From the IMG/VR virus record IMGVR_UViG_3300035158_000183, positions 1-64,000 of that record: a stretch of DNA of 64,000 nucleotides. One strand, written 5' to 3'. Shown piece after piece: positions 4,634-23,914 of this stretch (positions are counted from its first letter, which is position 1; every line of letters begins with the position of its first letter). The notes below the pieces were generated by a model, which saw nothing but the letters and a program-made list of their open reading frames with translations, searched no databases and was not told where the DNA came from. The translations under genes were made by a program, and so were the position numbers. The stretch comes from a virus.

Positions 4634-4636
4634 TAG

Positions 4637-4844: not shown

Positions 4845-4862
4845 TGCCAAGGAGGAGAAGAT

Positions 4863-4940: not shown

Positions 4941-4946
4941 TCCATA

Positions 4947-5540: not shown

Positions 5541-5561
5541 CAGGAGATGAGAGGAAGAGGG

Positions 5562-5837: not shown

Positions 5838-5881
5838 GAACGTGGGGGATGAGTGAAAGGAATTAAAATGGAGGTGACGCA

Positions 5882-6577: not shown

Positions 6578-6588
6578 GGAGGCAAAGA

Positions 6589-7071: not shown

Positions 7072-7119
7072 CGCGAACCGTTGTACAAAATACGCTCCCA
7101 ACGGCGAAAGGCGGCGGGG

Positions 7120-7878: not shown

Positions 7879-7905
7879 GTGATATCAATCCAAGACATAG
7901 AGGTA

Positions 7906-7978
7906 GCACCTGTAGCTCAGCTGGCAGAGCGTGACGTTGCCAACGTCGAGGCCACGGGTTCGAACCCCGTCAGGTGCT
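7906..7978 (+). tRNA. tRNA-Gly (GCC)
   Basis: Acceptor GCACCTG/CAGGTGC, D stem GCTC/GAGC, anticodon loop TTGCCAA, T arm ACGGG TTCGAAC CCCGT. The anticodon GCC reads GGC/GGU. No encoded CCA. It follows the last ATGAGTGA junction, whose 19-codon frame runs into the tRNA. Confidence 0.93.
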
Positions 7979-7990
7979 CTGAGGAGACAG

Positions 7991-9388
7991 ATGCCAGATA
8001 TAGAGAAAAATCTGACCGAGTTGGGCAAGAAGGTACCACACCAGCTCAAGGATATAGCCGACCACCTACACAATGAGGGCGGCGAGGCCTATCTTGTAGG
8101 CGGCGCTGTAGTAGACCATCTCCTTGGGCACGAGATCAAGGACTGGGACATAGAGGTATTCGGCCTTAGCTATGAAAACCTGCTAGATATTTTGTCCCAA
8201 TACGGCCACACAGACCTGATTGGTAGTAAGTTCGGTGTGGTTAAACTGGTCGCTGACCTGCTAGACATGGAGTTCACAGTACCCAGGCTAGAGAACAGCA
8301 CTGGCCCTAAGCATCAGGACTTCGATATTCAGCTCATCCCCAGCATATCTGTGGAGCAGGCTGGGCATCGCCGAGACTTCACCATCAACTCCATCTACTA
8401 TGATATCAAGCACGACCTGGTAGTAGATCCCTTTGCGGGAATAGCGGCACTGAAAGCCGGTCTGATCTGTCATATAGATGATGAGACCTTCCCGCAGGAT
8501 CCCTTGAGGGCCTACAGGGCTATACAGTTGTGTGCCCGGAAGGGCAAGACTATCTGTCCTCATACACAGGGCCTGATACGGAGTATGCTGGAAGAGTGCG
8601 CGGCGATTCCGGGAGAAGCTATCTATGGTGAGCTTACCAAATGCTTGATGAAAGCCGAGAAACCCTCGGTCGGATTACAGTTCCTTAAAGGTACACAATT
8701 GATCTACAACCACCCTGAGCTAGCTATTCTGATAGGTGCCAGGCATAGGCCTGACTACCATCCTGAGGGAGATGTCTGGAACCACACCTTGATGGTAATA
8801 GACGAGGCAGCCAGATACCGGGACGAGCTGCCGGAGGAATGGAGGTTAGGGTTCATGTGGGGGATGCTCCTACATGATGTAGGGAAGCCTGCTACATACG
8901 ACCCGGAAACTGGCAGCACTCTGCAGCATGACAAGAAGGGTGAGGCTCCAGCCAGAGCTTGCCTCGGCCAGCTTACACAAGATAAGGATCTTACTGATAA
9001 AGCAGTCTCTATTGTCAGGAGTCACATGCGAGCCCGCTTACTCCTGAAAGCATCACCCCGTAAGGCCGCCTGGAGGCGGCTCCAGAACATCTGTCCTCTG
9101 AATATATTGGCCTATGTGTCCATGTGTGATGAAGATGGCAGGGGTGACCCAAACCAGAGGCTTGGCAAGGATGACCCGGTCTTTAAGAGGTGTACGGAGA
9201 TATATAAGGAGCTTGGCGCCCCAGAGCGGGAGATAAAACCCATCCTTATGGGCCGTCACCTCATAGCTGTCGGACACAAGCCCGGAGTACAGTTTGGGGT
9301 TATGTTAAAGAAAGCTTATGAGTACCAACTTGACGAGGGCTGTGAAGATGTAGATACTCTACTAGAGGTAGCCACTAAGCCGGTGTAG
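7991..9388 (+). CDS. cca: CCA-adding tRNA nucleotidyltransferase with HD domain
   Basis: Adds CCA to tRNA 3' ends. The nucleotidyltransferase head shows GG at 37-38 in YLVGGAVVDHLL, the metal-binding pair DWD (51-53) and the motif RRDFTINSI (127-135). PLRAYRAIQL (171-180) fits the family's second half-motif. A C-terminal HD phosphohydrolase domain is visible as VWNHTLMV and LLHDVGKP (H265, H294-D295 region), as in E. coli-type enzymes. ATG 7991 follows TGAGGAGACAG; the longer frame from 7931 would start inside tRNA-Gly. Since none of the eleven tRNAs encodes CCA, the gene has an evident job. Its last codons overlap tRNA-Thr. Confidence 0.9.
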   Translation: MPDIEKNLTELGKKVPHQLKDIADHLHNEGGEAYLVGGAVVDHLLGHEIKDWDIEVFGLSYENLLDILSQYGHTDLIGSKFGVVKLVADLLDMEFTVPRLENSTGPKHQDFDIQLIPSISVEQAGHRRDFTINSIYYDIKHDLVVDPFAGIAALKAGLICHIDDETFPQDPLRAYRAIQLCARKGKTICPHTQGLIRSMLEECAAIPGEAIYGELTKCLMKAEKPSVGLQFLKGTQLIYNHPELAILIGARHRPDYHPEGDVWNHTLMVIDEAARYRDELPEEWRLGFMWGMLLHDVGKPATYDPETGSTLQHDKKGEAPARACLGQLTQDKDLTDKAVSIVRSHMRARLLLKASPRKAAWRRLQNICPLNILAYVSMCDEDGRGDPNQRLGKDDPVFKRCTEIYKELGAPEREIKPILMGRHLIAVGHKPGVQFGVMLKKAYEYQLDEGCEDVDTLLEVATKPV

Positions 9389-9451
9389 CTCAATTGGCAG
9401 AGCACCTGATTTGTACCCAGGGGGTTGCAGGTTCAATTCCTGTCGCCGGCC
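9379..9451 (+). tRNA. tRNA-Thr (TGT)
   Basis: Acceptor GCCGGTG/CGCCGGC (one G-U), D stem GCTC/GAGC, anticodon loop TTTGTAC in CCTGA/CCAGG (one mismatch), T arm GCAGG TTCAATT CCTGT. The anticodon is TGT. The first ten bases lie inside the cca coding sequence, including its stop. No encoded CCA. Confidence 0.88.
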
Positions 9452-9464
9452 TAAGGAGAAGAAG

Positions 9465-9731
9465 ATGAAAGCATTACCGTTACTGGCTGTTATAACTATA
9501 GCAGGATGTGGCCTAATGGTGGGGAACGACGAGCCGGTTCAGACCCTGCAAGAGGCAGGCTACTCCAACATCAATTGCTATGACTCTCACTGGATCTTCC
9601 CTACCTTCTACGGGTGTGGTGAGCGTGATCACATAGCCTTCGAGTGCACAGCTACCAACCCAGCTGGGGGACATGTAGATGTCACTGTCTGTTCTAGTGC
9701 CACCTTCAAAGGATCGACCATAAGGCACTAG
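9465..9731 (+). CDS. Small lipoprotein (88 aa)
   Basis: ATG 9465 follows TAAGGAGAAGAAG. The first 15 residues form a signal peptide with a lipobox-like end (AVITIAGC), so Cys15 may be lipidated after export. The mature part has further cysteines (at CYDSH, GCGERD, FECTA, TVCSS) that could form disulfides outside the cytoplasm. Phage lipoproteins often block superinfection or belong to spanins; neither can be shown here. Confidence 0.65.
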   Translation: MKALPLLAVITIAGCGLMVGNDEPVQTLQEAGYSNINCYDSHWIFPTFYGCGERDHIAFECTATNPAGGHVDVTVCSSATFKGSTIRH

Positions 9732-9732
9732 C

Positions 9733-9987
9733 ATGCCCCGGCAGAAGACTAAGAAGAAATCCACCCCTAAGAAGGATACTCCCTACAAACAGTGCCAGGT
9801 ATCCCTAGAGGACGTTAAGCATATTGCCTGGATACCCACCAAGTTTGCTAAGGTTGGGAAGGTACTCAGGATTGCAGGCACTGATGGTTATATTGTTGAG
9901 GAAGTGTACGATATTACAAAGACCTGGGAAGAGGTTGAGAAGATGGGGTTCTACCACCTAGTACACCGAGAGGCAACTGACATATGA
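9733..9987 (+). CDS. Hypothetical basic protein (84 aa)
   Basis: Starts one base after the previous stop. The first 16 residues are strongly basic (KTKKKSTPKK). The rest is beta-rich (WIPTKFAKVGKVLRI, DGYIVEEVYD) and ends with TWEEVEKMGF, a short motif shared with the proteins at 10490 and, more loosely, 5882. Nucleic-acid binding is a guess from charge. Its stop overlaps the next ATG. Confidence 0.6.
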   Translation: MPRQKTKKKSTPKKDTPYKQCQVSLEDVKHIAWIPTKFAKVGKVLRIAGTDGYIVEEVYDITKTWEEVEKMGFYHLVHREATDI

Positions 9988-10259
9988 AGCACAGTGAGGA
10001 ATTTTCCAAGGAATTCAGGGCACTTATGGCCACCTGTGAGGAGGCTATCAGCAATGTACTGCTGAGCGAGAGCCGAATATCTAAGCACCAGCCCTGGACA
10101 TGGCAGGATGAGCCCAAGATCGGTCACCTTCTGAAGGCCGCCAGACACATCATGACCCATGTCCTTATCACCAATGGACAACAGGAACCTACAGGAGATA
10201 ACCATTTAGATAATGCTATGTGCCGTCTTGTGATGGCCATGACCAGAAAAGGTAGTTGA
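9984..10259 (+). CDS. Hypothetical helical protein (91 aa)
   Basis: ATGA overlap with the preceding gene. The protein looks all-helical, with a conserved-looking stretch KIGHLLKAARHIMTH (about 46-60) and a NHLDNAMCRL stretch near the end, reminiscent of small helical phage proteins of the DUF5664/dCMP-associated type, but the match is too weak to name. Its stop codon is embedded in the TTGACA of the promoter that follows. Confidence 0.6.
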   Translation: MKHSEEFSKEFRALMATCEEAISNVLLSESRISKHQPWTWQDEPKIGHLLKAARHIMTHVLITNGQQEPTGDNHLDNAMCRLVMAMTRKGS

Positions 10260-10283
10260 CACACCGCCAAAGCATGTTATTAT
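10256..10283 (+). promoter_or_regulatory. Sigma-70-like promoter
   Basis: TTGACA (10256-10261), 16 bases, TATTAT (10278-10283). The -35 box overlaps the TGA of the preceding gene. A short gene and tRNA-Asn follow, then genes up to 11080, so it could serve the second half of the tRNA region. Confidence 0.65.
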
Positions 10284-10302
10284 AGTGTGAGAGGTGAATG
10301 AA

Positions 10303-10383
10303 ATGTCTATCTATACAGAATATAGAGTAAGCACAGTCCAAGACATTCCTACCAGTCTGCACACCTCATACCATAATAATTAG
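10303..10383 (+). CDS. Short ORF (26 aa)
   Basis: ATG 10303 lies about 14 bases after the likely transcription start and is preceded by GAGAGGTGAATGAA. The frame runs 26 codons. The peptide has no recognisable motif. It may be a leader peptide in front of tRNA-Asn. Positions 10384-10404 hold nothing I can name. Confidence 0.4.
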   Translation: MSIYTEYRVSTVQDIPTSLHTSYHNN

Positions 10384-10404
10384 TACTGACTGTAGATATA
10401 CTAC

Positions 10405-10476
10405 GGGTCAGTAGCTTAGCGGTCGAGCGCGACGCCGTTAACGTCGGAGGTGTAGGTTCGAATCCTACCTGGCCCG
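10405..10476 (+). tRNA. tRNA-Asn (GTT)
   Basis: Acceptor GGGTCAG/CTGGCCC (one G-U), anticodon stem CGACG/CGTCG with loop CCGTTAA, T arm GTAGG TTCGAAT CCTAC. The anticodon is GTT. Base 33 is C where U is nearly universal. No encoded CCA. Confidence 0.88.
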
Positions 10477-10489
10477 TCAAGGAGAGAAT

Positions 10490-11080
10490 ATGGGAGTGCC
10501 ACCAGAGAAACCACCGAAGAAATCCTGGAAAGACATGAAACTGCCTGCGGTGACCTGGGAAGAGGTTGAGAAGGCACAAGGCATTTCTTCCTACGCCGCT
10601 GGTGTGACAGGCCCGACAGGCCCGACAGGCCCTATGGAACCAACAGGTGTTACCACTCCCACAGGTCCAGTTGACACCCTATCTAAGGGTATACCAACGG
10701 GCCAGTTATTCTGGTGTCAAGACTGTGAGATGTGGCAGAGGCTGGATCACTCGGGCCCGGTTGGCACCATAGACCTCTGCCCAGGGTGCCATGGAAGCAA
10801 CACTCTTAGGATAGATAAGCTAGCTATCCAAGAGATAAAGAAGATACAGCAGGTCCTCGAGGAGCATTTTGTGACAAAGCCCTTGGAACCTAAGCCATCC
10901 ACCCCATTTGAACGGACGTGGATCGCTGTAGGAGCTGCTGCAATATTAGCACTCTTCCTTCTCATCTATGGCAGCTCCTGGATAGTAGATAATATTAGCA
11001 AAACTGGGGAGCCTGCCCTAGAGGCAGCCGAGCAGGATGAGTTCAGAGATCTAGAGAATACTTGGAGTGAGGAAGAATAA
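10490..11080 (+). CDS. Collagen-like, zinc-ribbon membrane protein (196 aa)
   Basis: Starts after TCAAGGAGAGAAT. In order: a Pro/Lys-rich start; the shared TWEEVEKAQG motif (22-31); a short collagen-like run of GPT triplets (about 38-60); a zinc ribbon with C76, C79, C97 and C100; a helical stretch; a single membrane helix (about 143-166); and an acidic tail. The collagen-like part is too short for a stable triple helix alone. The mix of a zinc ribbon with a membrane anchor is unusual. Topology and role are unknown. Confidence 0.65.
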   Translation: MGVPPEKPPKKSWKDMKLPAVTWEEVEKAQGISSYAAGVTGPTGPTGPMEPTGVTTPTGPVDTLSKGIPTGQLFWCQDCEMWQRLDHSGPVGTIDLCPGCHGSNTLRIDKLAIQEIKKIQQVLEEHFVTKPLEPKPSTPFERTWIAVGAAAILALFLLIYGSSWIVDNISKTGEPALEAAEQDEFRDLENTWSEEE

Positions 11081-11083
11081 TAT

Positions 11084-11157
11084 GCTGGGGTTAGCCGAGT
11101 GGTTTCAGGCGCAGCGTTGTGGCCGCTGTAACACGGGTTCGAACCCCGTACCTCAGC
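11084..11157 (+). tRNA. tRNA-His (GTG)
   Basis: Acceptor CTGGGGT/ACCTCAG, anticodon stem CAGCG/CGCTG with loop TTGTGGC, T arm ACGGG TTCGAAC CCCGT. The His-specific extra G at position -1 is encoded (11084) and faces C73 (11157), as histidyl-tRNA synthetase requires. No encoded CCA. Confidence 0.92.
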
Positions 11158-11412
11158 CTAATATACCTCTAGGGGAGGACCTGGCACAGTCGGGCCGGTT
11201 ATATCTGCCTCAACATCTAGTTCAGGCTGATAAAACTCAATAGTTGCAGTCACTTGCGGAAAACCATTGCCTAGATATATGCTAAGGGCCTTAATCTTAC
11301 CAAGCGGAGCACCGGCACAATCAAGGATCTTGGTACCATCCTTAGTGCCATCTGATATAACTTTAACTCTACCGGGTTGCATACACCATTGTATCATATT
11401 TTCTTGTTGCAT
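11158..11412 (-). CDS. Hypothetical protein, minus strand (84 aa)
   Basis: The only minus-strand gene in the first 61 kb. Its stop abuts tRNA-His and its start faces the vWA gene. The core (VKVISDGTKDGTKI, a DGAPL-like turn, then a FYQPELDVEADI strand) aligns with the N-terminal half of the plus-strand protein at 53015 (IKIKSDGTPQGTYI, GAPIN, FLPELEMEI). I therefore take it as a real paralogue. Predicted fold is beta-rich; function unknown. Confidence 0.65.
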   Translation of the reverse strand: MQQENMIQWCMQPGRVKVISDGTKDGTKILDCAGAPLGKIKALSIYLGNGFPQVTATIEFYQPELDVEADITGPTVPGPPLEVY

Positions 11413-11458
11413 TATGTGGTCGGTGGTGTAAAGTAGTAGTTTGAAAGGAGACTACAAT

Positions 11459-12172
11459 ATGCCAGCTAAAAAGAAAACTACCAAGCAGAAGACCGAACTG
11501 GTCTGCATCCTTGATAGGAGCGGGTCCATGGGGTCCATGGCCGAGGAGGCCATTGGCGGCTTCAACAACTTCCTGGAAGAGCAGCAGAAGCTCCCAGGCA
11601 TTGCCAAGCTAACCCTATGCCTCTTTGACAACACCTACCAGCTACCCTACAGTGGTAAGGACGTCAAGAAGGTACAGCCCCTGAACAAGGACACCTACCG
11701 TCCCGGTGGTACCACAGCCCTCCTGGACGCCATTGGCAGGACAGTCAGGGACGTACAGACCAGGCTTGACAAGACCCCGAAGAACCGCAAGCCGGACAAA
11801 GTCATCATGGCCATCCTTACTGACGGTTATGAGAATGCATCCCAGGATTATACCTACGATAAGATCAGCGAGCTGCTCAGGAAACAGCGCGAGGATAATA
11901 ACTGGGAGATTATATACCTAGCAGCTAACCAGGAGTCCTTCGATGTAGGTCAGAGGATGGGTATCGCTGGCGTGGGCGCCTTGAATATAAACCTCGGTGG
12001 CGGTCCTAGGGGGATGAGCGTAGGCTATAACGCACTAACTTCCAGTGTCACCAGATCTAGGCATACCTGTGGGCAGGTCTATGCCAGCAACTGTAGCCTG
12101 GATGCTAGCGACGTAGCCAAGTGGGATACGGACGACGACCAGACAGATGACGGAGACGATATTGAAGAATAA
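11459..12172 (+). CDS. von Willebrand factor A (vWA) domain protein
   Basis: A single vWA domain with a complete metal-ion-dependent adhesion site: DRSGSM (19-24), the threonine of GGTTALLD (around 86) and TDGYEN (121-126). vWA domains bind protein partners through a divalent metal. The start at ATG 11459 follows GAAAGGAGACTACAAT. The C-terminus is a glycine/serine-rich segment and a strongly acidic tail (DTDDDQTDDGDDIEE). No MoxR-type ATPase partner is seen nearby. It may regulate host complexes; inference only. Confidence 0.75.
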   Translation: MPAKKKTTKQKTELVCILDRSGSMGSMAEEAIGGFNNFLEEQQKLPGIAKLTLCLFDNTYQLPYSGKDVKKVQPLNKDTYRPGGTTALLDAIGRTVRDVQTRLDKTPKNRKPDKVIMAILTDGYENASQDYTYDKISELLRKQREDNNWEIIYLAANQESFDVGQRMGIAGVGALNINLGGGPRGMSVGYNALTSSVTRSRHTCGQVYASNCSLDASDVAKWDTDDDQTDDGDDIEE

Positions 12173-12449
12173 TTGGTCCCGGAAGCCGCCCACCCCGCCA
12201 GAGGTCCCGCCATCCGACTGGTATTGGTATTGGGAAGACGGCGAGCCGGAACCATGTATTGTTGAAGTGTGGCCCAAGCGATGGTTAAAGCACTATAAGG
12301 GTCAATGGCACCCTATGCTTATCCAAAGACCACCAGATACGGAGAAGGAAGATGCTACAGACAAGGATGCCAGGCTACAACAGCGAAGGCGAAAAGATAA
12401 GCGTACTGCTCCAAAAGATCCAGCTAAACCTGCTGAGGAAAGTGGATAA
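12147..12449 (+). CDS. Hypothetical Trp/Pro-rich protein (100 aa)
   Basis: Overlaps the vWA gene by 26 bases. The N-terminal half is rich in Trp, Tyr and Pro (DWYWYWEDGEPEP, then WPKRWLKHYKGQWHP), a compact pattern seen in small conserved phage proteins. The C-terminal part is basic and low-complexity. No strong ribosome binding site is visible, so coupling to the vWA gene is likely. Function unknown. Confidence 0.55.
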   Translation: MTETILKNNWSRKPPTPPEVPPSDWYWYWEDGEPEPCIVEVWPKRWLKHYKGQWHPMLIQRPPDTEKEDATDKDARLQQRRRKDKRTAPKDPAKPAEESG

Positions 12450-12561
12450 GCTCACCAATTTAGAGAATAGCCAGCAAGTCAAAATGTCCCACGTCGAGCA
12501 GATGGTAGACATGATACACAAGCTAGGCGAAATCAAACCAGCTGGCAAGTACGCAACTTAG
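12352..12561 (+). CDS. Hypothetical coiled-coil protein (69 aa)
   Basis: ATG 12352 follows GAAGGAAG and the frame overlaps the previous gene by 98 bases, which is large for this genome. An internal ATG (12367) is possible. The product is helical with Leu/Ile heptads (VLLQKIQLNLLRKVDKL). The low-complexity tail of the upstream gene in the shared part suggests that one of the two starts or ends is wrong, or a real overlap. Confidence 0.45.
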   Translation: MLQTRMPGYNSEGEKISVLLQKIQLNLLRKVDKLTNLENSQQVKMSHVEQMVDMIHKLGEIKPAGKYAT

Positions 12562-12595
12562 ACAACCTCCTACCCACGTATCTATGGAGCCTAAC

Positions 12596-12907
12596 ATGAG
12601 CTGTCGCAAGATTAAAGACCCTACTAAAGTGAAGAAGACCAAGCTGCCGGAGATCGGGATGAAGGAGGCCCTGTACTCCCATCTGTTTACCACCAGGCAG
12701 CAGAGGGAACACGAGGAGGAAGAGGCTGTCGCCAAGCTTATCCAGGATGGACAGCTGGACCTCCTGAAGGTCAAGGATTACGACTACATGAGTAAGATAG
12801 CCAAGGGCTTGGACTGGAGTATAGGCCGGCTCTTGAAGACAGTAAACAGGATGACAATCATCCTGCCAGAACAGCACACAGAAGGAGAGGAAGATGCAAA
12901 AGGTTAG
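12596..12907 (+). CDS. Hypothetical helical protein (103 aa)
   Basis: ATG 12596 is chosen because GGAG lies six bases upstream; the earlier ATG 12584 has no site. Lysine-rich start, then a Glu-rich helix (QQREHEEEEAVAKL) and a second helical part containing YDYMSKIAKGLDWS. It has the look of a small HTH or protein-protein adaptor. Its end overlaps the next gene by 14 bases. Confidence 0.55.
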   Translation: MSCRKIKDPTKVKKTKLPEIGMKEALYSHLFTTRQQREHEEEEAVAKLIQDGQLDLLKVKDYDYMSKIAKGLDWSIGRLLKTVNRMTIILPEQHTEGEEDAKG

Positions 12908-13265
12908 AGACATGTTCGGCAATTACATTGCCAAGGGTAACTACATTAGCTACCCATGCCGTAAGGGTAGCTCCACTTACATGCGGACAGCCAAGGTCAT
13001 TAACATCAGGGAGAGGAACCTAGATGGTGACAACCCTGAGACAGTCCTGGATGTAGCAGTAGCCATAGCTCCCAGGGACCATGAGCGGAAAGCCAACCCC
13101 AACTGGAAGACCAGGATCCGCAGGACTTGTGTAAGCCGTCACTACAGATCTTCCATTGTGCCTCAGTCCTACATCCAGCACGACAGACGATACAGCTGCC
13201 TGCTGGACTACGAGCCCCCACAGAGGAAGAAGAGCAAGAACGAAAAGCGTTCAGGCAAGTCCTAA
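12894..13265 (+). CDS. Hypothetical basic protein (123 aa)
   Basis: Begins after GAAGGAGAGGAAG. The N-terminus (MFGNYIAKGNYISYPCRKGSS) has the pattern of a small beta-barrel that many phage proteins share; the second half is strongly basic and ends KSKNEKRSGKS. RNA or DNA binding is possible from charge alone. Function unknown. Confidence 0.55.
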   Translation: MQKVRDMFGNYIAKGNYISYPCRKGSSTYMRTAKVINIRERNLDGDNPETVLDVAVAIAPRDHERKANPNWKTRIRRTCVSRHYRSSIVPQSYIQHDRRYSCLLDYEPPQRKKSKNEKRSGKS

Positions 13266-13266
13266 C

Positions 13267-13407
13267 ATGAAAATATTAGAACCGTGTGCACTCACAATAG
13301 TTTTCCATGCTCCCGAAGGCTATAGCTCTATAGAGCATTGGCTGGAGAGGGTCAACGAGCGCATACCCTCCATGTATGAAGACCTAGCCGAGGAGTTCCT
13401 AACATGA
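13267..13407 (+). CDS. Hypothetical short protein (46 aa)
   Basis: ATG one base after the previous stop, with only a weak upstream site. The product starts MKILEPCALTIVFH and ends with an acidic helix (MYEDLAEEFLT). Position and tight packing are the main support. It is followed by an ATGA overlap with a membrane peptide. Confidence 0.45.
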   Translation: MKILEPCALTIVFHAPEGYSSIEHWLERVNERIPSMYEDLAEEFLT

Positions 13408-13493
13408 TATACCTAATGGCTGGTATTGTGCTGGCAATGTGTGTATTCCTGGTCTATAAGGCCGTCACCACTAAGCCTAAGCGCAAGAAGTAG
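13404..13493 (+). CDS. Single-pass membrane peptide (29 aa)
   Basis: ATG 13404 overlaps the previous TGA. Residues 2-21 form a membrane helix and the tail TTKPKRKK is basic, predicting N-out/C-in orientation. The final G of its TAG is the first base of tRNA-Ser(CGA). The same arrangement recurs at 14188. Confidence 0.5.
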   Translation: MIYLMAGIVLAMCVFLVYKAVTTKPKRKK

Positions 13494-13577
13494 GAGGGTT
13501 GGCGGAACGGCAACGCGCCCGGCTCGAACCCGGTGGCCTGGGTAACACCAGTAGGAGTTCGAATCTTCTACCCTCCG
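13493..13577 (+). tRNA. tRNA-Ser (CGA)
   Basis: Acceptor GGAGGGT/ACCCTCC, anticodon loop CTCGAAC, long variable arm CCTGGGTAACACCAG shared with tRNA-Ser(GCT), T arm AGGAG TTCGAAT CTTCT. The anticodon CGA reads UCG. One anticodon-stem pair is mismatched. No encoded CCA. Confidence 0.88.
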
Positions 13578-13588
13578 CAGGAGACCAA

Positions 13589-14200
13589 ATGGCTAAACTA
13601 TATTTTAGATACGGCACTATGAATAGTGGCAAGACACTAAATCTGCTAGCTGTCGCACATAACTATGAGAACAGGCAGACCGAGCTACCAATTAAGAAGA
13701 AGGTGGTGATTGCCAAGCCTGCTGTGGATACTAGATTTGGGAGAGAGCTAGTCCACAGTCGGGCTGGCATTGATAGGGATGCCGATATCCTTCTCCGAGA
13801 TGAGACTAGCATCTACACCATGGTTAATGAGCCACAACAGTATGCCTGTATCCTAGTGGATGAGGCACAGTTTCTAACAGCTGCCATGGTAGACAGCCTT
13901 CGCAAGATCAGCATCAATTTTGACATTCCTGTAATATGTTATGGTTTACGGGCTGATTTCAAGTCACAGCTATTTGAAGGCTCCAAGAGATTGCTCGAGG
14001 TCGCCGACACCATTGAAGAAATCAAGACTGTCTGCACATTCTGTGACCAGAAAGCTACCATGAACATGAAGTACCAGGACGGCAGGGCCGTCGACACGGG
14101 ACCTTCAGTAGAGCTGGGAGCAGAAGAGAAGTACATGCCAGCATGCTGGAACTGCTATAGTACAGCCATTTCATCCAGAGGCATGCCATGGCAACCGTAG
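13589..14200 (+). CDS. tdk: Thymidine kinase (type II)
   Basis: Phosphorylates thymidine to dTMP with ATP. The P-loop GTMNSGKT (9-16), the catalytic/Walker B segment DEAQF (91-95) and a zinc ribbon (C149, C152, C186, C189) are all present, and 203 aa fits the family. ATG 13589 follows CAGGAGACCAA, directly after tRNA-Ser; the longer frame from 13499 would be translated through the tRNA. It would work with NrdJ, the deoxynucleotidase and Nmad1-like protein on the nucleotide pool. Only the C-terminus (RGMPWQP) is unusual. Confidence 0.92.
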   Translation: MAKLYFRYGTMNSGKTLNLLAVAHNYENRQTELPIKKKVVIAKPAVDTRFGRELVHSRAGIDRDADILLRDETSIYTMVNEPQQYACILVDEAQFLTAAMVDSLRKISINFDIPVICYGLRADFKSQLFEGSKRLLEVADTIEEIKTVCTFCDQKATMNMKYQDGRAVDTGPSVELGAEEKYMPACWNCYSTAISSRGMPWQP

Positions 14201-14253
14201 TAGTTACTTGCCTTATAATGCTCCTCTGGTTATGGATAATTAGTGACCACTAG
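14188..14253 (+). CDS. Single-pass membrane peptide (21 aa)
   Basis: ATG 14188 lies inside the end of tdk and the frame runs 21 codons to TAG 14251-14253. Nearly the whole peptide is hydrophobic (TVVVTCLIMLLWLWII). There is no clear ribosome binding site. It is listed because it copies the layout at 13404: a membrane peptide whose stop codon supplies the first base of a tRNA-Ser. Confidence 0.3.
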   Translation: MATVVVTCLIMLLWLWIISDH

Positions 14254-14336
14254 GAGGGTTGCGGGAGCAGTAACCGGCTTGCTTGGAAAGCAAAGGCCTC
14301 GGGAACGGGACGTGGGTGCAAATCCTACACCCTCCG
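14253..14336 (+). tRNA. tRNA-Ser (GGA)
   Basis: Acceptor GGAGGGT/ACCCTCC, anticodon loop TTGGAAA, a long variable arm (CCTCGGGAACGGG) and T arm GTGGG TGCAAAT CCTAC. The anticodon GGA reads UCC/UCU. The T loop has TGC where TTC is nearly invariant (base 55 is G), and the outer anticodon-stem pair is mismatched, so function may be impaired. No encoded CCA. Confidence 0.8.
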
Positions 14337-14371: not shown

Positions 14372-15334
14372 ATGCCAGCAGAGATCGAAAGCATAATGTA
14401 CGTGGGGGAGACACCGTGGCATGGCTCCGGCGTGTATGTCGGCGATGAGGACGTAGACTCCAAAACTGCCATCATCAACGCCGGACTGGACTGGAAGGTC
14501 AACAAACAGCCCGTATACGCACCCATTGACGGCGTGAATATGGTTGAGATTCCAGCATATAAGGCTACCGTAAGACAGGATGACGGGAAAATCCTGGGCA
14601 TTGTGGGTAGCCGCTACCAGCCTATCCAGAACGTCGAGGCCTTCGAGTTCATGGACTCTCTAGTAGATGAGGGCCTGATGAAGTACCACACAGCTGGTTC
14701 CCTGCGAGAAGGCAAGAGGATATGGCTCCTTGGCAAAATTGGCGACTCTGAGGTAGTACCGAAGGACAAGGTTGACCATTACCTCCTATTGCATAACAGC
14801 CATGATGGCCGCACAGCCCTTAGGGTACTGTTCACAGCTGTCCGGGTAGTATGTGCCAACACCATCCAGATTGCCCTGCAACGGGGTAAGCATGAAGGTA
14901 TTTATGTCCGGCACACCGTAAACTTGCAGGAAAGGTTGCACCAGGCCAAGGAAATCCTTGGGCTCGCCAAGCGGCAGTTCAACAACTTCACACAGTTTGC
15001 TCAGGCTGCTCAACAGGTCCAGATAGACCACAACCTATGGAATGAAATCACCAAGCAGCTATTCCCCGATCCGCCAGCTCCAGCCAAACCAGGCAGAGCC
15101 AAGAAGGCTCGCTCTGACCTGACCCTCCTGTTCGAAGACGGGATTGGCCAAGACATCCCAGGGGTAAGCGGCACTGGCTGGGCAGCATTTAATGCTGTTA
15201 CAGAGTATGCTAACTTCCACAGGGTAGCTCGCGGCGCACAGAAGCAGGAACGCAGGTTCGAGTCATCTCTATTCGGCGCCTCCGCCAAGCTTATCAACAA
15301 AGCGCAGAACATTATCACCGAGATAGCAGCATGA
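14372..15334 (+). CDS. DUF932 / TIGR03299-type phage-plasmid protein
   Basis: A 320-residue member of the family found on phages and plasmids, recognised from TPWHGSG near the start, AGLDWKVNKQPVYAP, GIVGSRYQPIQNVEAF (about 78-93) and the middle VRVVCANTIQIAL (about 159-171). The biochemical role of the family is not established. It is led by CAAGGAGAAGAAAG. A Pro/Ala-rich linker (about 228-242) separates the C-terminal part. Its stop overlaps the next start (ATGA). Confidence 0.8.
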   Translation: MPAEIESIMYVGETPWHGSGVYVGDEDVDSKTAIINAGLDWKVNKQPVYAPIDGVNMVEIPAYKATVRQDDGKILGIVGSRYQPIQNVEAFEFMDSLVDEGLMKYHTAGSLREGKRIWLLGKIGDSEVVPKDKVDHYLLLHNSHDGRTALRVLFTAVRVVCANTIQIALQRGKHEGIYVRHTVNLQERLHQAKEILGLAKRQFNNFTQFAQAAQQVQIDHNLWNEITKQLFPDPPAPAKPGRAKKARSDLTLLFEDGIGQDIPGVSGTGWAAFNAVTEYANFHRVARGAQKQERRFESSLFGASAKLINKAQNIITEIAA

Positions 15335-15654
15335 GCAGGTACTATAGATGGAGCATCACGATATCTGGTGATATTACCAAGGATGCCCAAGCTGCGGTTG
15401 AGACAGTTCTACTTGACTACTTCGAGGACTGGACATCCTACAAGCGGAAAGATGGCACAATCAGGATGGCAGCAGAAGGAGAGTGGAACATCGGTGGCGG
15501 TATGCCTGAGGTAGCCATGGTTCGTGAACTCCGCGAGCATATATGGGAAGCCACCGAAAAATACGTCGAGGTAGGTGTTGGGTGGAAATACCTTGAAGAC
15601 TATGACGGCTGGATGGATAGCAATGAAGAGGACTACGAGGAATGGGTCAAGTAG
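15331..15654 (+). CDS. Hypothetical acidic protein (107 aa)
   Basis: ATGA overlap with the DUF932 gene and a 13-base overlap with the PARP gene that follows. The start (YYRWSITISGDI) is a beta strand, followed by helices and a long acidic, Trp/Tyr-rich end (YLEDYDGWMDSNEEDYEEW). Tight coupling with the ADP-ribosyltransferase suggests joint expression and possibly a joint role, for example as partner or inhibitor. That is inference from position only. Confidence 0.6.
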   Translation: MSRYYRWSITISGDITKDAQAAVETVLLDYFEDWTSYKRKDGTIRMAAEGEWNIGGGMPEVAMVRELREHIWEATEKYVEVGVGWKYLEDYDGWMDSNEEDYEEWVK

Positions 15655-16853
15655 CTAAGCTAATATGTGTAACATCCCGAAATAATAACAAATACTATGA
15701 CATGACCGAGATCGACGGGGAGATTCATGTCAAGTATGGCAGGGTGGGTGTCACTGAGCAGACCGCTAGGTACCCCATGAGCAAATGGGACTCCCTCCTC
15801 CGCTCTAAGATTAAGAAGGGCTACAAGGATGTCACGGAACTGCGAGTCGTGGACGAGGTGGGTGACTTCCAGCAGATATCCAACGATGTCATAGCCGCCA
15901 TCGTCGGGGAATTACAGGCCTACGCCAAGAGGTCAGTCCAGAGGAACTACACCATCAGCTCAGAGGCAGTCACCCAGAAGCAGGTGGACGAGGCCCAGAG
16001 ACTGCTAGACAAACTTGCTGGGGTAGCCTCCAAGAAGCGCATCAAGTACCAGGAGTTCGACGACATACTGCTGGAGTTGTTCCAAGTGATTCCCAGGCGT
16101 ATGGGCAACGTGGCGGACCACCTACTGAAACCCCGTTCTGGCCAGGCACGGTGGTGGGACGACGCCCCGAGGATGGTAGCCACGGAGCAGGCTACCCTGG
16201 ATGTCATGAAGGGCCAGGTTTCGGTGAATACAGCCAAGAAGGCCAAGAAGGATGACATAGACCATACCACTATCCTAGATGCCATGGGGCTGGATATCCA
16301 AACCACCAGTGATAACGATATTAAGACTATCAGAACAGAGCTGGGTGGAATGAAAGGCCAGCTCGGGAGGTCCTTCCAGGTTATCAACAAGCGTACCCAG
16401 AAGAGGTTCAATGAGTTTGTTAAGAAATCCAAGAACAAGAAGCGGAAGCTGTTCTGGCATGGCTCCAGAAATGAAAACTGGTGGTCCATCCTCAACAGTG
16501 GTCTCGTACTTCGCCCTACGAATGCCGTTATCACAGGTAAAATGTTTGGATACGGGCTTTACTTCGCCGACCGAGCTAAGAAGAGCTACGGTTATACTTC
16601 GTGCAGAGGCTCATATTGGGCACGCGGATCGTCAGACAAAGGGTTTATGTCGCTTTACGATGTCCACCTCGGTCACAGCCTAGTTAAGAAGAGACACGAG
16701 GGATGGATGTACGATCTTACCCTTAAGAAACTCCGGGATAGAGGGGGTTATGATAGCCTCACCGCTCTAGGTGGGGCCGACCTGAGAAACAACGAGTTCA
16801 TCATTTACGATGAGAGACAGTGTACTGTCAAATACCTAGTGGAGGTAAGCTAA
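15642..16853 (+). CDS. Poly(ADP-ribose) polymerase-like protein with WGR domain
   Basis: Transfers ADP-ribose from NAD+ to a target. In order: a WGR domain (about 5-75) with the signature present as KYGRVG (31-36; Tyr replaces Trp); a helical PARP regulatory-like domain (about 85-215, ending near KPRSG-QARWWDD and DHTTILDAM); and a catalytic domain (about 225-403). The His-Tyr-Glu triad of PARP1-type enzymes is intact: H273 in LFWHGSR, Y318 in the FAD-x4-SYGY block, and E385 in NNEFIIYD. H-Y-E usually means chain-forming activity, and WGR usually senses DNA breaks or 5' phosphates. No zinc finger, BRCT or macrodomain is visible. The start overlaps the upstream gene by 13 bases. Confidence 0.88.
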   Translation: MGQVAKLICVTSRNNNKYYDMTEIDGEIHVKYGRVGVTEQTARYPMSKWDSLLRSKIKKGYKDVTELRVVDEVGDFQQISNDVIAAIVGELQAYAKRSVQRNYTISSEAVTQKQVDEAQRLLDKLAGVASKKRIKYQEFDDILLELFQVIPRRMGNVADHLLKPRSGQARWWDDAPRMVATEQATLDVMKGQVSVNTAKKAKKDDIDHTTILDAMGLDIQTTSDNDIKTIRTELGGMKGQLGRSFQVINKRTQKRFNEFVKKSKNKKRKLFWHGSRNENWWSILNSGLVLRPTNAVITGKMFGYGLYFADRAKKSYGYTSCRGSYWARGSSDKGFMSLYDVHLGHSLVKKRHEGWMYDLTLKKLRDRGGYDSLTALGGADLRNNEFIIYDERQCTVKYLVEVS

Positions 16854-17086
16854 TGGGATTGAACAATGTTTATGCAGCAGGGAAAGGGAACCCGGATGGT
16901 TCTAATGGCGCCAGGAATGGCGGCATAGGATTCTTTGGCCTCCTGACTATAGTATTTATCATACTCAAGCTTCTAGGAGCCATAACATGGTCCTGGGCAT
17001 GGGTGCTAGCACCACTCTGGATGCCAGTCCTGCTCATAGTGATAATTGCTGTGATAGCTGGCATAGTCTTAAAGCTAAATTACTGA
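16853..17086 (+). CDS. Small two-pass membrane protein (77 aa)
   Basis: TAATG junction with the PARP gene. After a Gly/Asn-rich start come two membrane helices (about 25-45 and 49-73). The stretch ILKLLGAITWSWAWVLAPLW resembles small phage membrane proteins that databases label as Fragile-X-F-type, a name without functional meaning. It is not next to lysis genes by operon (those have their own promoter), so a holin role is uncertain. Confidence 0.65.
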   Translation: MGLNNVYAAGKGNPDGSNGARNGGIGFFGLLTIVFIILKLLGAITWSWAWVLAPLWMPVLLIVIIAVIAGIVLKLNY

Positions 17087-18072
17087 TGAGCGACAAGCTT
17101 AGAAAATATGCTGCAGAGAACTGCATTCTTGAGATAGTGGCAGGCTCCCACCTGTATGGCACCTCTACACCTGAGAGCGATGAAGACTATGTAGGAGTAT
17201 TCCTACCGCCACCAGAGTATGTCCTCGGACTACAATCCGTACAGGAAGTGGACTTCAGTGTCAAAGATAAGAGTGAGGATGGAAAGAACACTGCTGATGC
17301 CGTGGACAGAAAACTCTACGAGTTCCGCAAGTTCATCAATCTAGCCCTACAGAACAACCCCAACATCATTGAGATACTCTTTACTAATGAGCAGGCCATC
17401 AAGAAGATAGACCCTTATGGCCAACGACTACTGGCCCTCAGGAATTTATTCCCCAGCAGACAATGTGTGCCTAGGTTCTTAGGCTATGCTAAGAGTCAGA
17501 AGCACAAGATGATCATGCGCCGGGACCGCTTCAATGAGCTGAGGTTGGCCCACGAGGTTCTCAGCAAGTACGCCGATAAGGACGTGATGGCCGAGGTATT
17601 TACCACCTGTGACGTAGAATATTTTCCACCTGAGCAGGCCAACGGCGAGATGCTATTCTGGAAGAAAGTAGGAGGTACTCACATTCATGTAGGGGACATC
17701 TGCTTCGAGCCCGGCGTATACGTCAAGAAAGCCAGGAAGAAACTCAAGGAACGACTCGATAAAGTAACTAATAGAAGTGAGCTAATTCTTAAATATGGAT
17801 ATGATACCAAATTTGCATCACACCTCATCAGGCTACTCTATGAGGGTCTAATGCTCTTAGAATACGGTGAGTTGGAGTTCCCACTTCCAATGTCAAGTCT
17901 GATACTGGATATCAAGAATGGAGCCTGGGAAGTAGAGAAAGTTATTGAGTTTTCCGACGAACTGGAGAAGAAATACAACACAGCAGAGGAGAAAACTAAG
18001 CTCCCTAAGACTGCGAATTTCAAGAGGATTGAGGAGTTTACCATCAATACGATGCGTAATTGGCTTGGATAG
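17086..18072 (+). CDS. Predicted nucleotidyltransferase (328 aa)
   Basis: ATG 17086 overlaps the preceding TGA by one base. The N-terminus has the nucleotidyltransferase pattern GSHLYGTSTPESDEDYVGVF: the glycine-serine turn and an Asp pair (DED) that would bind metal. The rest is helical and resembles the large predicted nucleotidyltransferases of COG3541 type, found in many phages. The transferred nucleotide and the target are not known; tRNA-end or antibiotic-type substrates are both possible. A possible degenerate relative lies at 21178. Confidence 0.7.
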   Translation: MSDKLRKYAAENCILEIVAGSHLYGTSTPESDEDYVGVFLPPPEYVLGLQSVQEVDFSVKDKSEDGKNTADAVDRKLYEFRKFINLALQNNPNIIEILFTNEQAIKKIDPYGQRLLALRNLFPSRQCVPRFLGYAKSQKHKMIMRRDRFNELRLAHEVLSKYADKDVMAEVFTTCDVEYFPPEQANGEMLFWKKVGGTHIHVGDICFEPGVYVKKARKKLKERLDKVTNRSELILKYGYDTKFASHLIRLLYEGLMLLEYGELEFPLPMSSLILDIKNGAWEVEKVIEFSDELEKKYNTAEEKTKLPKTANFKRIEEFTINTMRNWLG

Positions 18073-21177: not shown

Positions 21178-21957
21178 ATGCACTCTGAGTTCTACTACGG
21201 CATACCACAAACTCAATGGGATGAGCTACTGTTCCAAGCCGAAGATCTGCTCAGAGATGAAAGGCTAGGCCAACACCTGGTAGGAGCCTACCCAGCAGGC
21301 GACAGGATTTATGGGATAGATCGTCCCCCAGGGATAATGTGTCTCTATGTGGACTCAGTAGAATCCTTACTAAATCCAACCCTGGCTACAACCAAGTCCG
21401 CCGGACCATATGAGACCAATACAGGTCCAATCTGGATGGTTAACCTATTCAGCTGGATCAAATGGATAACTACAGCTACTAGCTGTACGGCCTGGACTGC
21501 CAACCTCCTACACCTCATACCCTCAGGTGACTTATTACATGAGGATGAAAGCATCTCCGATATCATAAGCCTGGCAAATCAGTATATAGTCAAGGTTGGT
21601 CCGGCTCCATATGAACGGTTAGAACCTGGCCCTATACCACTTAGTCACTACCTCCCTATGCGCACTATACTGATAGCAATGAAGACTGGTAAGTTTTACC
21701 CATGTATTAATCCGGAATGGGGTACAGTATTCAGGCTAAACGAACTCAATCCCCCAACCTACATCTCTGCTATGGATCAGGCCATCAGACTGTATATAAT
21801 TGGCCAATCTGACGAGGAGCCTACCGACATTCTACAGTCAGCCAGCCACTGGATTAACCAACAGCTGAAAGAGCTAGAATCAGGGTGGGCCTCTGCCAGA
21901 GAGCTTAAGGTCCAACTAGGTGAGGCTACTGCCAGCTTGTATAGGAACCTGATATGA
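21178..21957 (+). CDS. Hypothetical protein, nucleotidyltransferase-like start (259 aa)
   Basis: The segment AGDRIYGIDRPPGIMCLYVDS (first 20 residues shown in part; about 39-59) keeps the G-x-YG turn of nucleotidyltransferases such as the gene at 17086 but lacks the expected Asp pair, so it may be inactive. Several Trp-rich stretches and a helical C-terminus follow. It ends with an ATGA overlap with the adenylyltransferase gene. The function is unknown. Confidence 0.55.
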   Translation: MHSEFYYGIPQTQWDELLFQAEDLLRDERLGQHLVGAYPAGDRIYGIDRPPGIMCLYVDSVESLLNPTLATTKSAGPYETNTGPIWMVNLFSWIKWITTATSCTAWTANLLHLIPSGDLLHEDESISDIISLANQYIVKVGPAPYERLEPGPIPLSHYLPMRTILIAMKTGKFYPCINPEWGTVFRLNELNPPTYISAMDQAIRLYIIGQSDEEPTDILQSASHWINQQLKELESGWASARELKVQLGEATASLYRNLI

Positions 21958-22394
21958 GAGTAGTAGTGAACGGCTGCTTCGATAGATTACATAGCGGACA
22001 CAAGTACATTCTGGTACACGCTCTACGCATAGCCCATATATCCGACGGGAAACTACTAGTGTTATTAAATAGTGATGAGTCCGTCCGTAGGCTCAAGGGG
22101 CCAAACAGGCCACTCGAGACATGGGATATCAGGTCCAACAAAATACTTGAGTATCTACAGATATTCGCCCCAAGCATGATGCACCAGGTAACAGAGTTCG
22201 ATACTGAGGAGGAACTGGAAGAACATATACTCAAGTTCCACCCTCACATGATTGTTAAGGGGAACGACAGACCAGACGTTAGAGAGATAGTAGGATCTGA
22301 CCGTTTCCCCGTACTAATAGTGCCAAGGATACCAGGAGTATCCACTACAGAGGAGTTAAATGCCGACCCTGAGAGAGAAGAAACTACTAAGTAA
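21954..22394 (+). CDS. HldE C-terminal-type adenylyl/cytidylyltransferase
   Basis: A 146-residue nucleotidyltransferase of the HIGH family. The phosphate-binding motif is GCFDRLHSGH (7-16), with both histidines. LLVLLNSDESVRRLKGPNRP and HMIVKGND match the adenylyltransferase half of HldE/RfaE, which joins ADP to heptose-1-phosphate; glycerol-3-phosphate cytidylyltransferases are near relatives. The kinase half is encoded separately three genes on (22967). Together they could make ADP-heptose-like sugar for the GT9-type transferases at 55-58 kb. Confidence 0.75.
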   Translation: MRVVVNGCFDRLHSGHKYILVHALRIAHISDGKLLVLLNSDESVRRLKGPNRPLETWDIRSNKILEYLQIFAPSMMHQVTEFDTEEELEEHILKFHPHMIVKGNDRPDVREIVGSDRFPVLIVPRIPGVSTTEELNADPEREETTK

Positions 22395-22599
22395 GTACGT
22401 TGCCGGGGAGACCAAGCGCTGCCTCAGCCTAGTCAAGATGGCCTTCCAGTGCGTAGGGGATCAGGTCCCACAGTTATCACTGGACTTGATGTACCGGGCA
22501 CTCGCTAGAGATGTTATTAAGGGCTGCCCCTACTTAGAATTCCACGAAGACCTGCAAAAGCAGTTGACAGAGCTTGAAGAGCAGGGTAAGGTCGAATAA
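22360..22599 (+). CDS. Hypothetical helical protein (79 aa)
   Basis: Starts inside the preceding gene (35-base overlap) and runs to 22599. The product is helical and has a plausible core (CLSLVKMAFQCVGDQVP, LMYRALARDVIKG). It lies between the two sugar-activation genes, which may be chance. Function unknown. Confidence 0.55.
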   Translation: MPTLREKKLLSKYVAGETKRCLSLVKMAFQCVGDQVPQLSLDLMYRALARDVIKGCPYLEFHEDLQKQLTELEEQGKVE

Positions 22600-22611
22600 G
22601 AAGAGGGAGTG

Positions 22612-23022
22612 ATGGCAAAATTACACTTCATACAAGAGAAGCTACACATACCGGAAGTAGCCACCAAGGAGTGGGGTGAGGAACATATCATCTGCAGGCA
22701 TCCACATGCCTGTAAGGTAATGATACTTAAGCCCGGCTACCAGGTAAGCCTACACTGGCACAGGAAGAAGTCTGAGACATTTGTACTCATCAAGGGACAG
22801 CTTATCATCGAGATGATTACCCGAGAAGGCAAGACATACACACACCACCTGACAGAGGCATACTCCTCTGTAACACTACTCCCTAACACCCCGCATACAT
22901 TTTATTGCCCAGACGGGCAGCTAAAGCCGACTATATTTATGGAGGCTTCTACGAGGGACAGCCCAGATGACAGCTACAGAGTCTATCCCAGCGGGCCAAG
23001 ACCGGCTCCTGATTATAGGTGA
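22612..23022 (+). CDS. Cupin-domain sugar-phosphate isomerase-like protein
   Basis: A 136-residue single cupin. The first cupin motif is VSLHWHRKKSETFVLIKG (two His, one Glu; about 46-63), the second includes NTPHTFYCP (about 93-101). KEWGEEHII at the start resembles mannose-6-phosphate isomerase-type and sugar-nucleotide-epimerase-type cupins. Its position between an HldE-like adenylyltransferase and kinase suggests a sugar-phosphate isomerase, perhaps standing in for GmhA. That is inference. ATG 22612 is preferred over GTG 22609; AAGAGGGAGTG precedes it. Confidence 0.65.
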   Translation: MAKLHFIQEKLHIPEVATKEWGEEHIICRHPHACKVMILKPGYQVSLHWHRKKSETFVLIKGQLIIEMITREGKTYTHHLTEAYSSVTLLPNTPHTFYCPDGQLKPTIFMEASTRDSPDDSYRVYPSGPRPAPDYR

Positions 23023-23914
23023 CTTGCTAATAGACGAGACGTATTACGTCAGCGTCCCTAAACTCTCCCCAGAGGCCCCAGTCCCCGTTGCTTGCCTCAC
23101 AGGCGGCCCTGTTTGTACACCTGGAGGTGCTGGCCTAGTCGCAGCATTTGCTGCCCGAGAAAATATCCCATCAGTATTTGCTACCTACTGCGATGAGGCC
23201 ACAGCTATGTGGCTACAGCAGACCTTCGAGATCCACACACTCACCTCCGGGCACCACGGCAGACTGGAAAACATCAAGAAGACCAGATATATAGACATGG
23301 CCACCGGCTATCACTTAATCCGGGTCGACAACGACAATATAGCTGACCGACCCAATGAGTGGGCTTACGAGTGCCTCCGTAGGAGCCTAGACCGTGCTTT
23401 CCGTGACTACCACATCCCTATAGTCCTAATAGCAGACTATCGGAAAGGACTCCTTGAGGACGAGGATACTGTATACTGGATCATTCGCCAGGCGCATAAA
23501 CACAGGGCCAAGATATATGTAGACAGCCGGGCTACAGATCTAATTAAATTCACCGGAGTAGACGTACTGAAGCTCAATGACAGTGAATTTTCGTCTGCGA
23601 AGCGCGCTCTCAACGCCTCCCATGAGGGGCAAGTGATGGAAAACCTTGGTGTTTCACGCCTGATAGTGACGAGGGGCGCCGGGGGTGCAGAGCTACATCA
23701 TAAAGGCAGGGCCATAGAGGCCAAGCCAGACCTAACCGGCTTTACAGGTACCCCCGATGTCACCGGGTGCGGGGACATGTTCGGCGTGACATTTTGTAAT
23801 CATTGGGGTATAAAGGATATAGCTCCTGAGGATGCCATTAGAACGGCAGTCCAGAGGGCTACTGAGCTTGCATACGAGCCCATAGGAGAAAGGCTATATG
23901 TCCCTGACGTTTGA
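22967..23914 (+). CDS. HldE N-terminal-type PfkB sugar kinase
   Basis: A 315-residue PfkB/ribokinase-fold kinase. IIGDLLIDETYYVSVPKLSP and EAPVPV (about 17-40) correspond to the opening of HldE heptose-7-phosphate kinases (GDxxLDxY...RISPEAPVPV). The signature PDVTGCGDMFG (about 263-273) contains the catalytic base D270. IVLIADYRKGLL and LKLNDSEF also fit. It overlaps the cupin gene by 56 bases. With the adenylyltransferase at 21954 it makes a split HldE, usually one fused polypeptide in Enterobacteria. Confidence 0.75.
   Translation: MTATESIPAGQDRLLIIGDLLIDETYYVSVPKLSPEAPVPVACLTGGPVCTPGGAGLVAAFAARENIPSVFATYCDEATAMWLQQTFEIHTLTSGHHGRLENIKKTRYIDMATGYHLIRVDNDNIADRPNEWAYECLRRSLDRAFRDYHIPIVLIADYRKGLLEDEDTVYWIIRQAHKHRAKIYVDSRATDLIKFTGVDVLKLNDSEFSSAKRALNASHEGQVMENLGVSRLIVTRGAGGAELHHKGRAIEAKPDLTGFTGTPDVTGCGDMFGVTFCNHWGIKDIAPEDAIRTAVQRATELAYEPIGERLYVPDV

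What the first reader, a model, noticed from the sequence alone, without database searches (positions are those of the whole stretch)
15642..16853. Phage-encoded PARP with WGR domain and intact H-Y-E triad
The gene joins a WGR domain (KYGRVG at 31-36), a helical regulatory-like segment and a PARP catalytic domain with H273, Y318 and E385. This is the layout of DNA-break-activated PARP2/3-type enzymes, but without zinc fingers or BRCT. PARP homologues in phages are known only rarely (Aeromonas phage Aeh1 is one I recall). Possible roles: sensing phage DNA ends, modifying host RNA polymerase or nucleases, or draining NAD+ as a competitor of NAD+-based defences. No macrodomain or ADP-ribosyl hydrolase that would undo the mark is recognisable.
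Basis: partly seen in the sequence, partly recalled or inferred. Interest (0 to 1): 0.82.

Follow-up and report, generated by a model that had tools for sequence, protein, structure and literature searches.

The report
Phage PARP of the DNA-break-sensing type
This bacterial virus carries a genuine relative of the human DNA-break-sensing PARP2/PARP3 enzymes; such phage genes were already known, but many of its relatives in other phages turn out to sit in an operon with a matching eraser enzyme, which would make an animal-like reversible tagging system testable in phages.

Summary
In detail: window 15642-16853 (+) encodes a 403-aa PARP with WGR, helical and catalytic domains. Pfam PARP E=6e-25; the family profile matches human PARP2 at E=8e-33; the AlphaFold model (pLDDT 90) matches DNA-bound PARP1/PARP2 end to end. 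One correction: the triad is H273-Y307-E385; Y318 is the second pocket tyrosine. All are nearly invariant in 70 relatives.

Phage PARPs are not new: they are in PHROGs, in the literature since 2005, and annotated in Cellulophaga, Klebsiella and Xanthomonas phages. This is a new member of a known kind.

New, within the papers searched, is the context. A TARG1-like macrodomain (human TARG1, E=8e-39) lies within 6 kb of 54 of 92 relatives, next to the PARP in 46. In reverse, all 62 phage loci found with that macrodomain carry a PARP, including 23 the PARP search had missed. The window's lineage lacks this eraser. Its PARP instead sits in a run of five overlapping genes with the RNA-repair nucleotidyltransferase RlaP.

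Most likely it is a nucleic-acid-end-activated ADP-ribosyltransferase. Target, chain length and biological role are untested.

The parts
15642..16853 (+). WGR-HD-CAT PARP, 403 aa. WGR about 1-76, helical domain about 80-200, ART catalytic domain about 205-403. Triad H273-Y307-E385, second pocket Tyr Y318
15649..15869 (+). WGR domain (residues about 3-76; NNNKYY motif at 14-19, KYGRVG at 31-36, K56, Y61, D63 invariant)
15879..16241 (+). Helical domain (residues about 80-200; invariant L143, P151, R152, M154, E182, L186, D187)
   Evidence: profile alignment to PARP2; helices in model
16254..16850 (+). PARP catalytic (ART) domain, H-Y-E type
14372..15334 (+). DUF932 protein, first gene of the overlapping run; also upstream of the PARP in L076
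15331..15654 (+). 107-aa orphan ORF; overlaps DUF932 by 4 nt and the PARP by 13 nt; no relative in viral contigs
16853..17086 (+). 77-aa small membrane-type protein (sub-threshold PF10269, 21 bits); start overlaps the PARP stop by 1 nt (TAATG)
17086..18072 (+). RlaP (RNA-repair DNA-polymerase-beta-family nucleotidyltransferase). Start re-assigned to 17086 (TGATG overlap) from the alignment with L076, where RlaP also directly follows the PARP

Best explanation
The gene encodes an active, H-Y-E type ADP-ribosyltransferase built like the DNA-dependent PARPs (PARP2/PARP3). The WGR domain binds the end of a broken nucleic acid. Binding relieves inhibition by the helical domain. The catalytic domain then transfers ADP-ribose from NAD+ to itself, to a nearby protein or to the nucleic-acid end. 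In this phage it is made from one run of overlapping genes together with RlaP, so its likely service is recognising and marking broken nucleic acid (phage DNA ends, or RNA cut by host defences) during infection. Shown here by computation: family, domain layout, fold, conserved catalytic residues, overlapping gene run. Inferred: DNA-dependence, by analogy with the two bacterial WGR-PARPs assayed with activated DNA, CdPARP and HaPARP (PMC5966428). Also inferred: the HD gating and the role in repair. Unknown: target, and mono- versus poly-ADP-ribose.
For: PARP domain E=6e-25; profile-to-PARP2 alignment through WGR, HD and CAT at E=8e-33; AF2 model pLDDT 90.4, pTM 0.85; Foldseek best hits are DNA-break-bound PARP1 (8g0h, E=1.8e-19), PARP2 (6x0l) and PARP3. 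Catalytic and WGR residues are conserved across 70 diverse relatives, as expected of an active enzyme under constraint. The gene overlaps of 4, 13, 1 and 1 nt from DUF932 to RlaP imply co-expression; PARP followed by RlaP recurs in L076 at 63% PARP identity. Neighbours of relatives include many ligases and repair genes: ATP-dependent DNA ligase is the commonest family within two genes, with RtcB, RNA ligase and Thg1 in the window's wider group. Many relatives of another clade sit by replication genes such as DnaE and primase. In the window genome the PARP lies in the + strand early-type region, far from the large - strand genes.
Against: No activity or DNA-binding data exist for any phage PARP in the papers I could search. 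The first WGR position is Y, not W, although Y is also the commonest residue in bacterial PARPs, CdPARP among them (PMC5966428). PARP1 Tyr986, two residues before the catalytic Glu, is Asn in 93 of 99 family members, and there is a conserved family-specific insert GSYWARG after Y318, so chain elongation may differ from PARP1/2. Pfam PARP_reg itself hits only 1 of 61 members. Gene neighbourhood is circumstantial, and replication and repair genes cluster in large phages anyway.
Confidence: 0.7

Rival explanations
1. Nucleic-acid-end modifier: the enzyme's main substrate is the phosphorylated end of broken RNA or DNA, and ADP-ribosylation caps the end or holds it for RlaP and ligases in RNA (tRNA) repair.
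For: Directly coupled to RlaP in the window and in L076. RNA-repair genes (RlaP, RNA ligase, RtcB) lie within the flanks in 9 of 16 phages of the groups without TARG1, against 4 of 43 in the TARG1 clade (post hoc, not corrected for kinship). The window holds 11 tRNA genes and a poly(A) polymerase/CCA-type nucleotidyltransferase. PARP1-3 can modify nucleic acids in vitro (abstract of PMC8053099).
Against: RlaP is immediately adjacent in only two loci. RNA-repair genes are common in large phages. WGR domains are best known for DNA-end binding.
Confidence: 0.3
2. Half of a writer-eraser pair: ADP-ribosylation by the phage PARP is normally reversed by a TARG1-like macrodomain, and the window lineage has lost it, never had it, or uses the host's eraser or its own NADAR.
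For: TARG1-like gene within 6 kb in 54/92 relatives, directly upstream in 46; 62/62 in the reverse search, 23 of them contigs not returned by the PARP search; best PDB match human TARG1 E=8e-39, with the Lys84 and acid-125 regions kept in most. NADAR in the window genome.
Against: No macrodomain or ARH in the 174-kb record. The pair is confined to one clade, and the window lies outside it. The record has no terminal repeat and may be incomplete. NADARs are known for guanine ADP-ribose, not PARP products.
Confidence: 0.3
3. Host take-over enzyme like T4 Alt/ModA/ModB: it modifies host RNA polymerase or ribosomal proteins early in infection.
For: Proposed for phage ARTs, and for phage PARPs in particular, in reviews (PMC7824862, PMC9503650).
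Against: H-Y-E rather than the R-S-E clade of Alt/Mod. No packaging context: not near the structural genes and no MuF fusion. A break-sensing WGR-HD module is not expected for constitutive host modification.
Confidence: 0.15
4. NAD+ sink: it burns NAD+ to deny it to NAD+-using defences, or acts as a superinfection-exclusion toxin.
For: PARPs consume NAD+; nicotinate phosphoribosyltransferase genes neighbour the PARP in L003 and L005.
Against: A phage needs NAD+ during infection, and a salvage gene nearby argues for keeping NAD+ supplied. Many relatives carry an eraser. No toxin-antitoxin layout in the window.
Confidence: 0.07

Closest known systems
Human PARP2/PARP3 (ARTD2/3), WGR-HD-CAT DNA-dependent ADP-ribosyltransferases
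   Same: Same three domains in the same order, H-Y-E triad, NNNKYY and GRVG motifs in WGR, whole-length fold match
   Different: About 20% identity by fold alignment; no N-terminal region; Y instead of W in WGR; Asn at the PARP1 Tyr986 position; GSYWARG insert after Y318; shorter loop before the catalytic Glu
phrog_23333 and annotated phage PARPs (Cellulophaga phi4:1, Klebsiella vB_KpM_FBKp34, Xanthomonas XacN1)
   Same: Homologous over 96-100% of the protein; WGR-regulatory-catalytic layout annotated in FBKp34
   Different: Only 27-31% identity to the named phages; different neighbours (CCA-type enzyme and DNA ligase; class III RNR downstream)
Bacterial WGR-PARPs CdPARP and HaPARP (shown to auto-modify with activated DNA, PMC5966428)
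   Same: YGR-type WGR, helical domain missed by Pfam in most, H-Y-E
   Different: Chromosomal, and paired in their cells with a bacterial-type PARG; no PARG found here (no positive control)
Human TARG1/OARD1 (eraser found beside relatives, not in the window)
   Same: Relatives' neighbour aligns over 143 residues at E=8e-39
   Different: Absent from the window genome

Membership tests
PARP / ARTD (H-Y-E ADP-ribosyltransferases) | Catalytic domain homologous to PF00644 | tested here: met
   E=6.2e-25, 88 bits vs cut-off 26.7
PARP / ARTD (H-Y-E ADP-ribosyltransferases) | H-Y-E triad | tested here: met
   H273, Y307, E385 align with PARP1 H862/Y896/E988; 70/70, 70/70, 69/70 conserved
PARP / ARTD (H-Y-E ADP-ribosyltransferases) | ART fold | tested here: met
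   AF2 pLDDT 90, PDB fold matches are PARP1-3 and PARP4
DNA-dependent PARP (PARP1/2/3 type) | WGR domain | tested here: met
   Below Pfam cut-off alone, but 53/61 members hit, profile and fold agree
DNA-dependent PARP (PARP1/2/3 type) | Autoinhibitory helical domain | tested here: met
   Presence by alignment to PARP2/PARP1 HD and helices in the model; Pfam PARP_reg only 1/61; autoinhibition not tested
DNA-dependent PARP (PARP1/2/3 type) | Activity stimulated by nucleic-acid breaks | not testable with these tools
   needs enzyme assay
DNA-dependent PARP (PARP1/2/3 type) | Poly-ADP-ribose chain formation | tested here: inconclusive
   Catalytic Glu kept; PARP1 Tyr986 position is Asn in 93/99
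Phage TARG1-PARP operon | TARG1-like macrodomain near the PARP | tested here: not met
   No macrodomain at -1 or anywhere in the 174-kb record
T4 Alt/ModA/ModB type phage ART | R-S-E active site, virion packaging context | tested here: not met
   H-Y-E residues; gene in + strand early-type region

The most novel reading that the evidence does not exclude
Large phages run a complete reversible, break-triggered ADP-ribosylation system of the kind otherwise associated with eukaryotes: a PARP2/3-type writer co-transcribed with a TARG1-type eraser in one clade. In the window's lineage the same writer is coupled to RlaP, so ADP-ribose marks direct repair of phage DNA or RNA broken by host defences.
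Probability: 0.25. Interest if true: 0.8.

Novelty: new member of a known kind. Interest (0 to 1): 0.5.

Why it matters
The family is rare in the bacterial genomes sampled (5 of 395 Bacteroidota and 0 of 398 genomes of a second phylum, seed genomes excluded) but occurs in many unrelated large phages, so phages may be an important reservoir and carrier of DNA-break PARPs. If the enzyme is break-activated, phages would offer a minimal three-domain PARP, and in related phages a two-gene writer-eraser system, in which to ask what ADP-ribosylation of broken nucleic acid does outside eukaryotes. No phage PARP has a measured activity in the papers I could search.

Tried and rejected
Macrodomain, ARH and microbial PARG in the same genome: none found (PARG had no positive control, so that absence is weak). 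NADAR: found, but at 158 kb and not linked to the PARP. The 107-aa ORF directly upstream of the PARP: no relative among viral contigs. PADLOC was not searched. Close relative of the window among named phages by DNA: none. Bacterial origin of the window PARP: nearest bacterial sequences are Bacteroidota (L088/L089), but support for that grouping is moderate (SH-aLRT 94 and 88), so direction of transfer is left open. The contrast in RNA-repair neighbours was found after looking and is not corrected for kinship. A formal distance test of PARP to DNA ligase was not run.

Full report
Observation. The ORF 15642-16853 (+) is 403 codons from ATG to stop. Pfam finds the PARP catalytic domain at 245-403 (E=6.2e-25) and a sub-threshold WGR (16.7 of 22 bits); PHROGs assigns phrog_23333 over almost the full length. 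PARP1's triad is H862, Y896, E988 (PMC8150716). Y896 lies in GIYFAD, which aligns with GLYFAD here, so the equivalent is Y307, with identical spacing from the histidine (34 residues). Y318 is the second pocket tyrosine. The published C. difficile enzyme has the same two-tyrosine pattern 11 residues apart (Y359 and Y370, PMC5966428).

Family. A scan of IMG/VR gave 79 loci encoding relatives, and an exact motif scan gave 84 stretches. INPHARED holds 15 records with relatives, from Cellulophaga, Klebsiella, Xanthomonas and Stenotrophomonas phages and two uncultured ones. One scan of 84,980 species genomes gave 13 loci. Sampled whole genomes gave 5 of 395 Bacteroidota and 0 of 398 genomes of a second phylum, seed genomes excluded. 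In 70 non-redundant sequences G33-R34 of the WGR, H273, Y307, Y318 and helical-domain residues P151, R152, E182, L186 and D187 do not vary.

Fold. A 61-sequence alignment gave an AlphaFold model with mean pLDDT 90.4 and pTM 0.85: an N-terminal beta-rich WGR, a helical bundle at about 82-201, and the ART domain. The Foldseek top hits are human PARP1 (WGR-HD-CAT) on a DNA double-strand break, PARP2 on a bridged break, and PARP3. The alignment profile hits PARP2 at E=8e-33, with separate matches to WGR, HD plus CAT, and the C-terminal Glu segment. Two features set the family apart from PARP1/2: Asn at the Tyr986 position in 93 of 99 sequences, and a conserved GSYWARG-type insert after Y318. Because Tyr986 is, from my own knowledge, implicated in PARP1 chain elongation and branching, 'poly' should not be assumed.

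Context in the window. DUF932 (14372-15334), a 107-aa ORF (15331-15654), the PARP (15642-16853), a 77-aa small membrane-type protein (16853-17086) and RlaP (17086-18072, start re-assigned) overlap one another by 4, 13, 1 and 1 nt. This is strong evidence of one co-translated unit. The nearest relative, L076, keeps DUF932, PARP and RlaP, with RlaP again overlapping the PARP by 4 nt. The neighbourhood also holds 11 tRNA genes, a poly(A) polymerase/CCA-type nucleotidyltransferase, an ATP-dependent DNA ligase, RecA, DNA polymerase III alpha and a ribonucleotide reductase. The big - strand genes lie from 62 kb on.

Context in relatives. Clustering the neighbours of 92 loci gave one dominant family, a protein of about 145 aa in 54 loci and directly upstream of the PARP in 46. 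It is a macrodomain (21 of 28 members hit PF01661) whose closest solved relative is human TARG1/OARD1 at E=8e-39. The motifs around TARG1 Lys84 and the acidic residue 125 are kept in most members. A separate scan for this macrodomain found 62 viral loci, and every one carries a PARP on the same strand just downstream. By comparing the contig lists, 23 of these had not been returned by the PARP scan, so adjacency was not selected for there, although the macrodomain query itself came from PARP neighbourhoods. On the PARP tree the trait clusters in one large clade; the window lies outside it, in a group without the macrodomain. Whole-record searches of its near relatives and of the window record found none. 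Other neighbours include ATP-dependent DNA ligase (the commonest family within two genes), nicotinate phosphoribosyltransferase, RtcB, RNA ligase and Thg1.

Interpretation. Shown by computation: a member of the PARP family of the WGR-HD-CAT type, under strong constraint, in a tight gene run with RlaP. Inferred: activation by nucleic-acid ends, since the closest assayed bacterial enzymes need activated DNA (PMC5966428). Also inferred: a role in handling broken phage DNA or RNA rather than in take-over of host transcription. Not known: substrate, chain length, timing.

Known literature. Phage PARPs were noted in 2005 (PMC1266365), 2014 (PMC4245714) and 2021-2022 (PMC7824862, PMC9503650). The 2022 review discusses sirtuin-macro and ART-ARG pairs; in the passages read it does not mention a PARP-TARG1 pair, and searches of the held library found none. 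Subscription papers are not in that library, so this absence is provisional.

Verdict. Observation confirmed with one residue corrected; interpretation partly supported. The window gene is a new member of a known kind. The TARG1-PARP pairing in its relatives is the more interesting result.

Noticed in passing
L042:5527-7191 and 61 further loci (L114-L175): TARG1-like macrodomain gene just upstream of a PARP, same strand; 62 of 62 loci found by the macrodomain carry a PARP.
   Followed up: yes
own record 158490-158957 (L085:15490-15957), outside the window: NADAR-domain protein (PF08719, 74 bits), an ADP-ribose-related hydrolase family, in the same phage genome.
   Followed up: partly
window 27715-32676, 34230-36323, 39309-43883: Intein or LAGLIDADG insertions in three replication genes: class II ribonucleotide reductase, RecA and DNA polymerase III alpha.
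   Followed up: partly
window 21954-23914: HldE-like nucleotidyltransferase, cupin and PfkB-type kinase genes together, resembling split ADP-heptose synthesis; a heptosyltransferase-family gene lies at 55444-57441. The HldE reading of 22967-23914 is from sequence motifs, Pfam gave no hit.
   Followed up: no
window 4454-14336: Eleven tRNA genes interspersed with protein genes, plus a poly(A) polymerase/CCA-type nucleotidyltransferase at 7991-9388.
   Followed up: no
window 51348-52412: GcrA-like cell-cycle regulator domain (28.1 bits), a hint of an alphaproteobacterial host.
   Followed up: no
L031:4095-7200: Two PARP genes in near-tandem in one phage, each preceded by a related 183-185-aa gene.
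   Followed up: no
L124 and L125, 3910-5163: PARP open frame split by a stop codon in two related contigs; possible inactivated copy or sequencing error.
   Followed up: no
L101:1064-1579 (Klebsiella phage vB_KpM_FBKp34): 'Putative phosphatase' 2.4 kb upstream of its PARP matches the TARG1-like macrodomain profile (E=1e-12) but no Pfam family.
   Followed up: partly
L003:7382-8479 and L005:4389-5546: Nicotinate phosphoribosyltransferase genes (NAD+ salvage) beside the PARP.
   Followed up: partly
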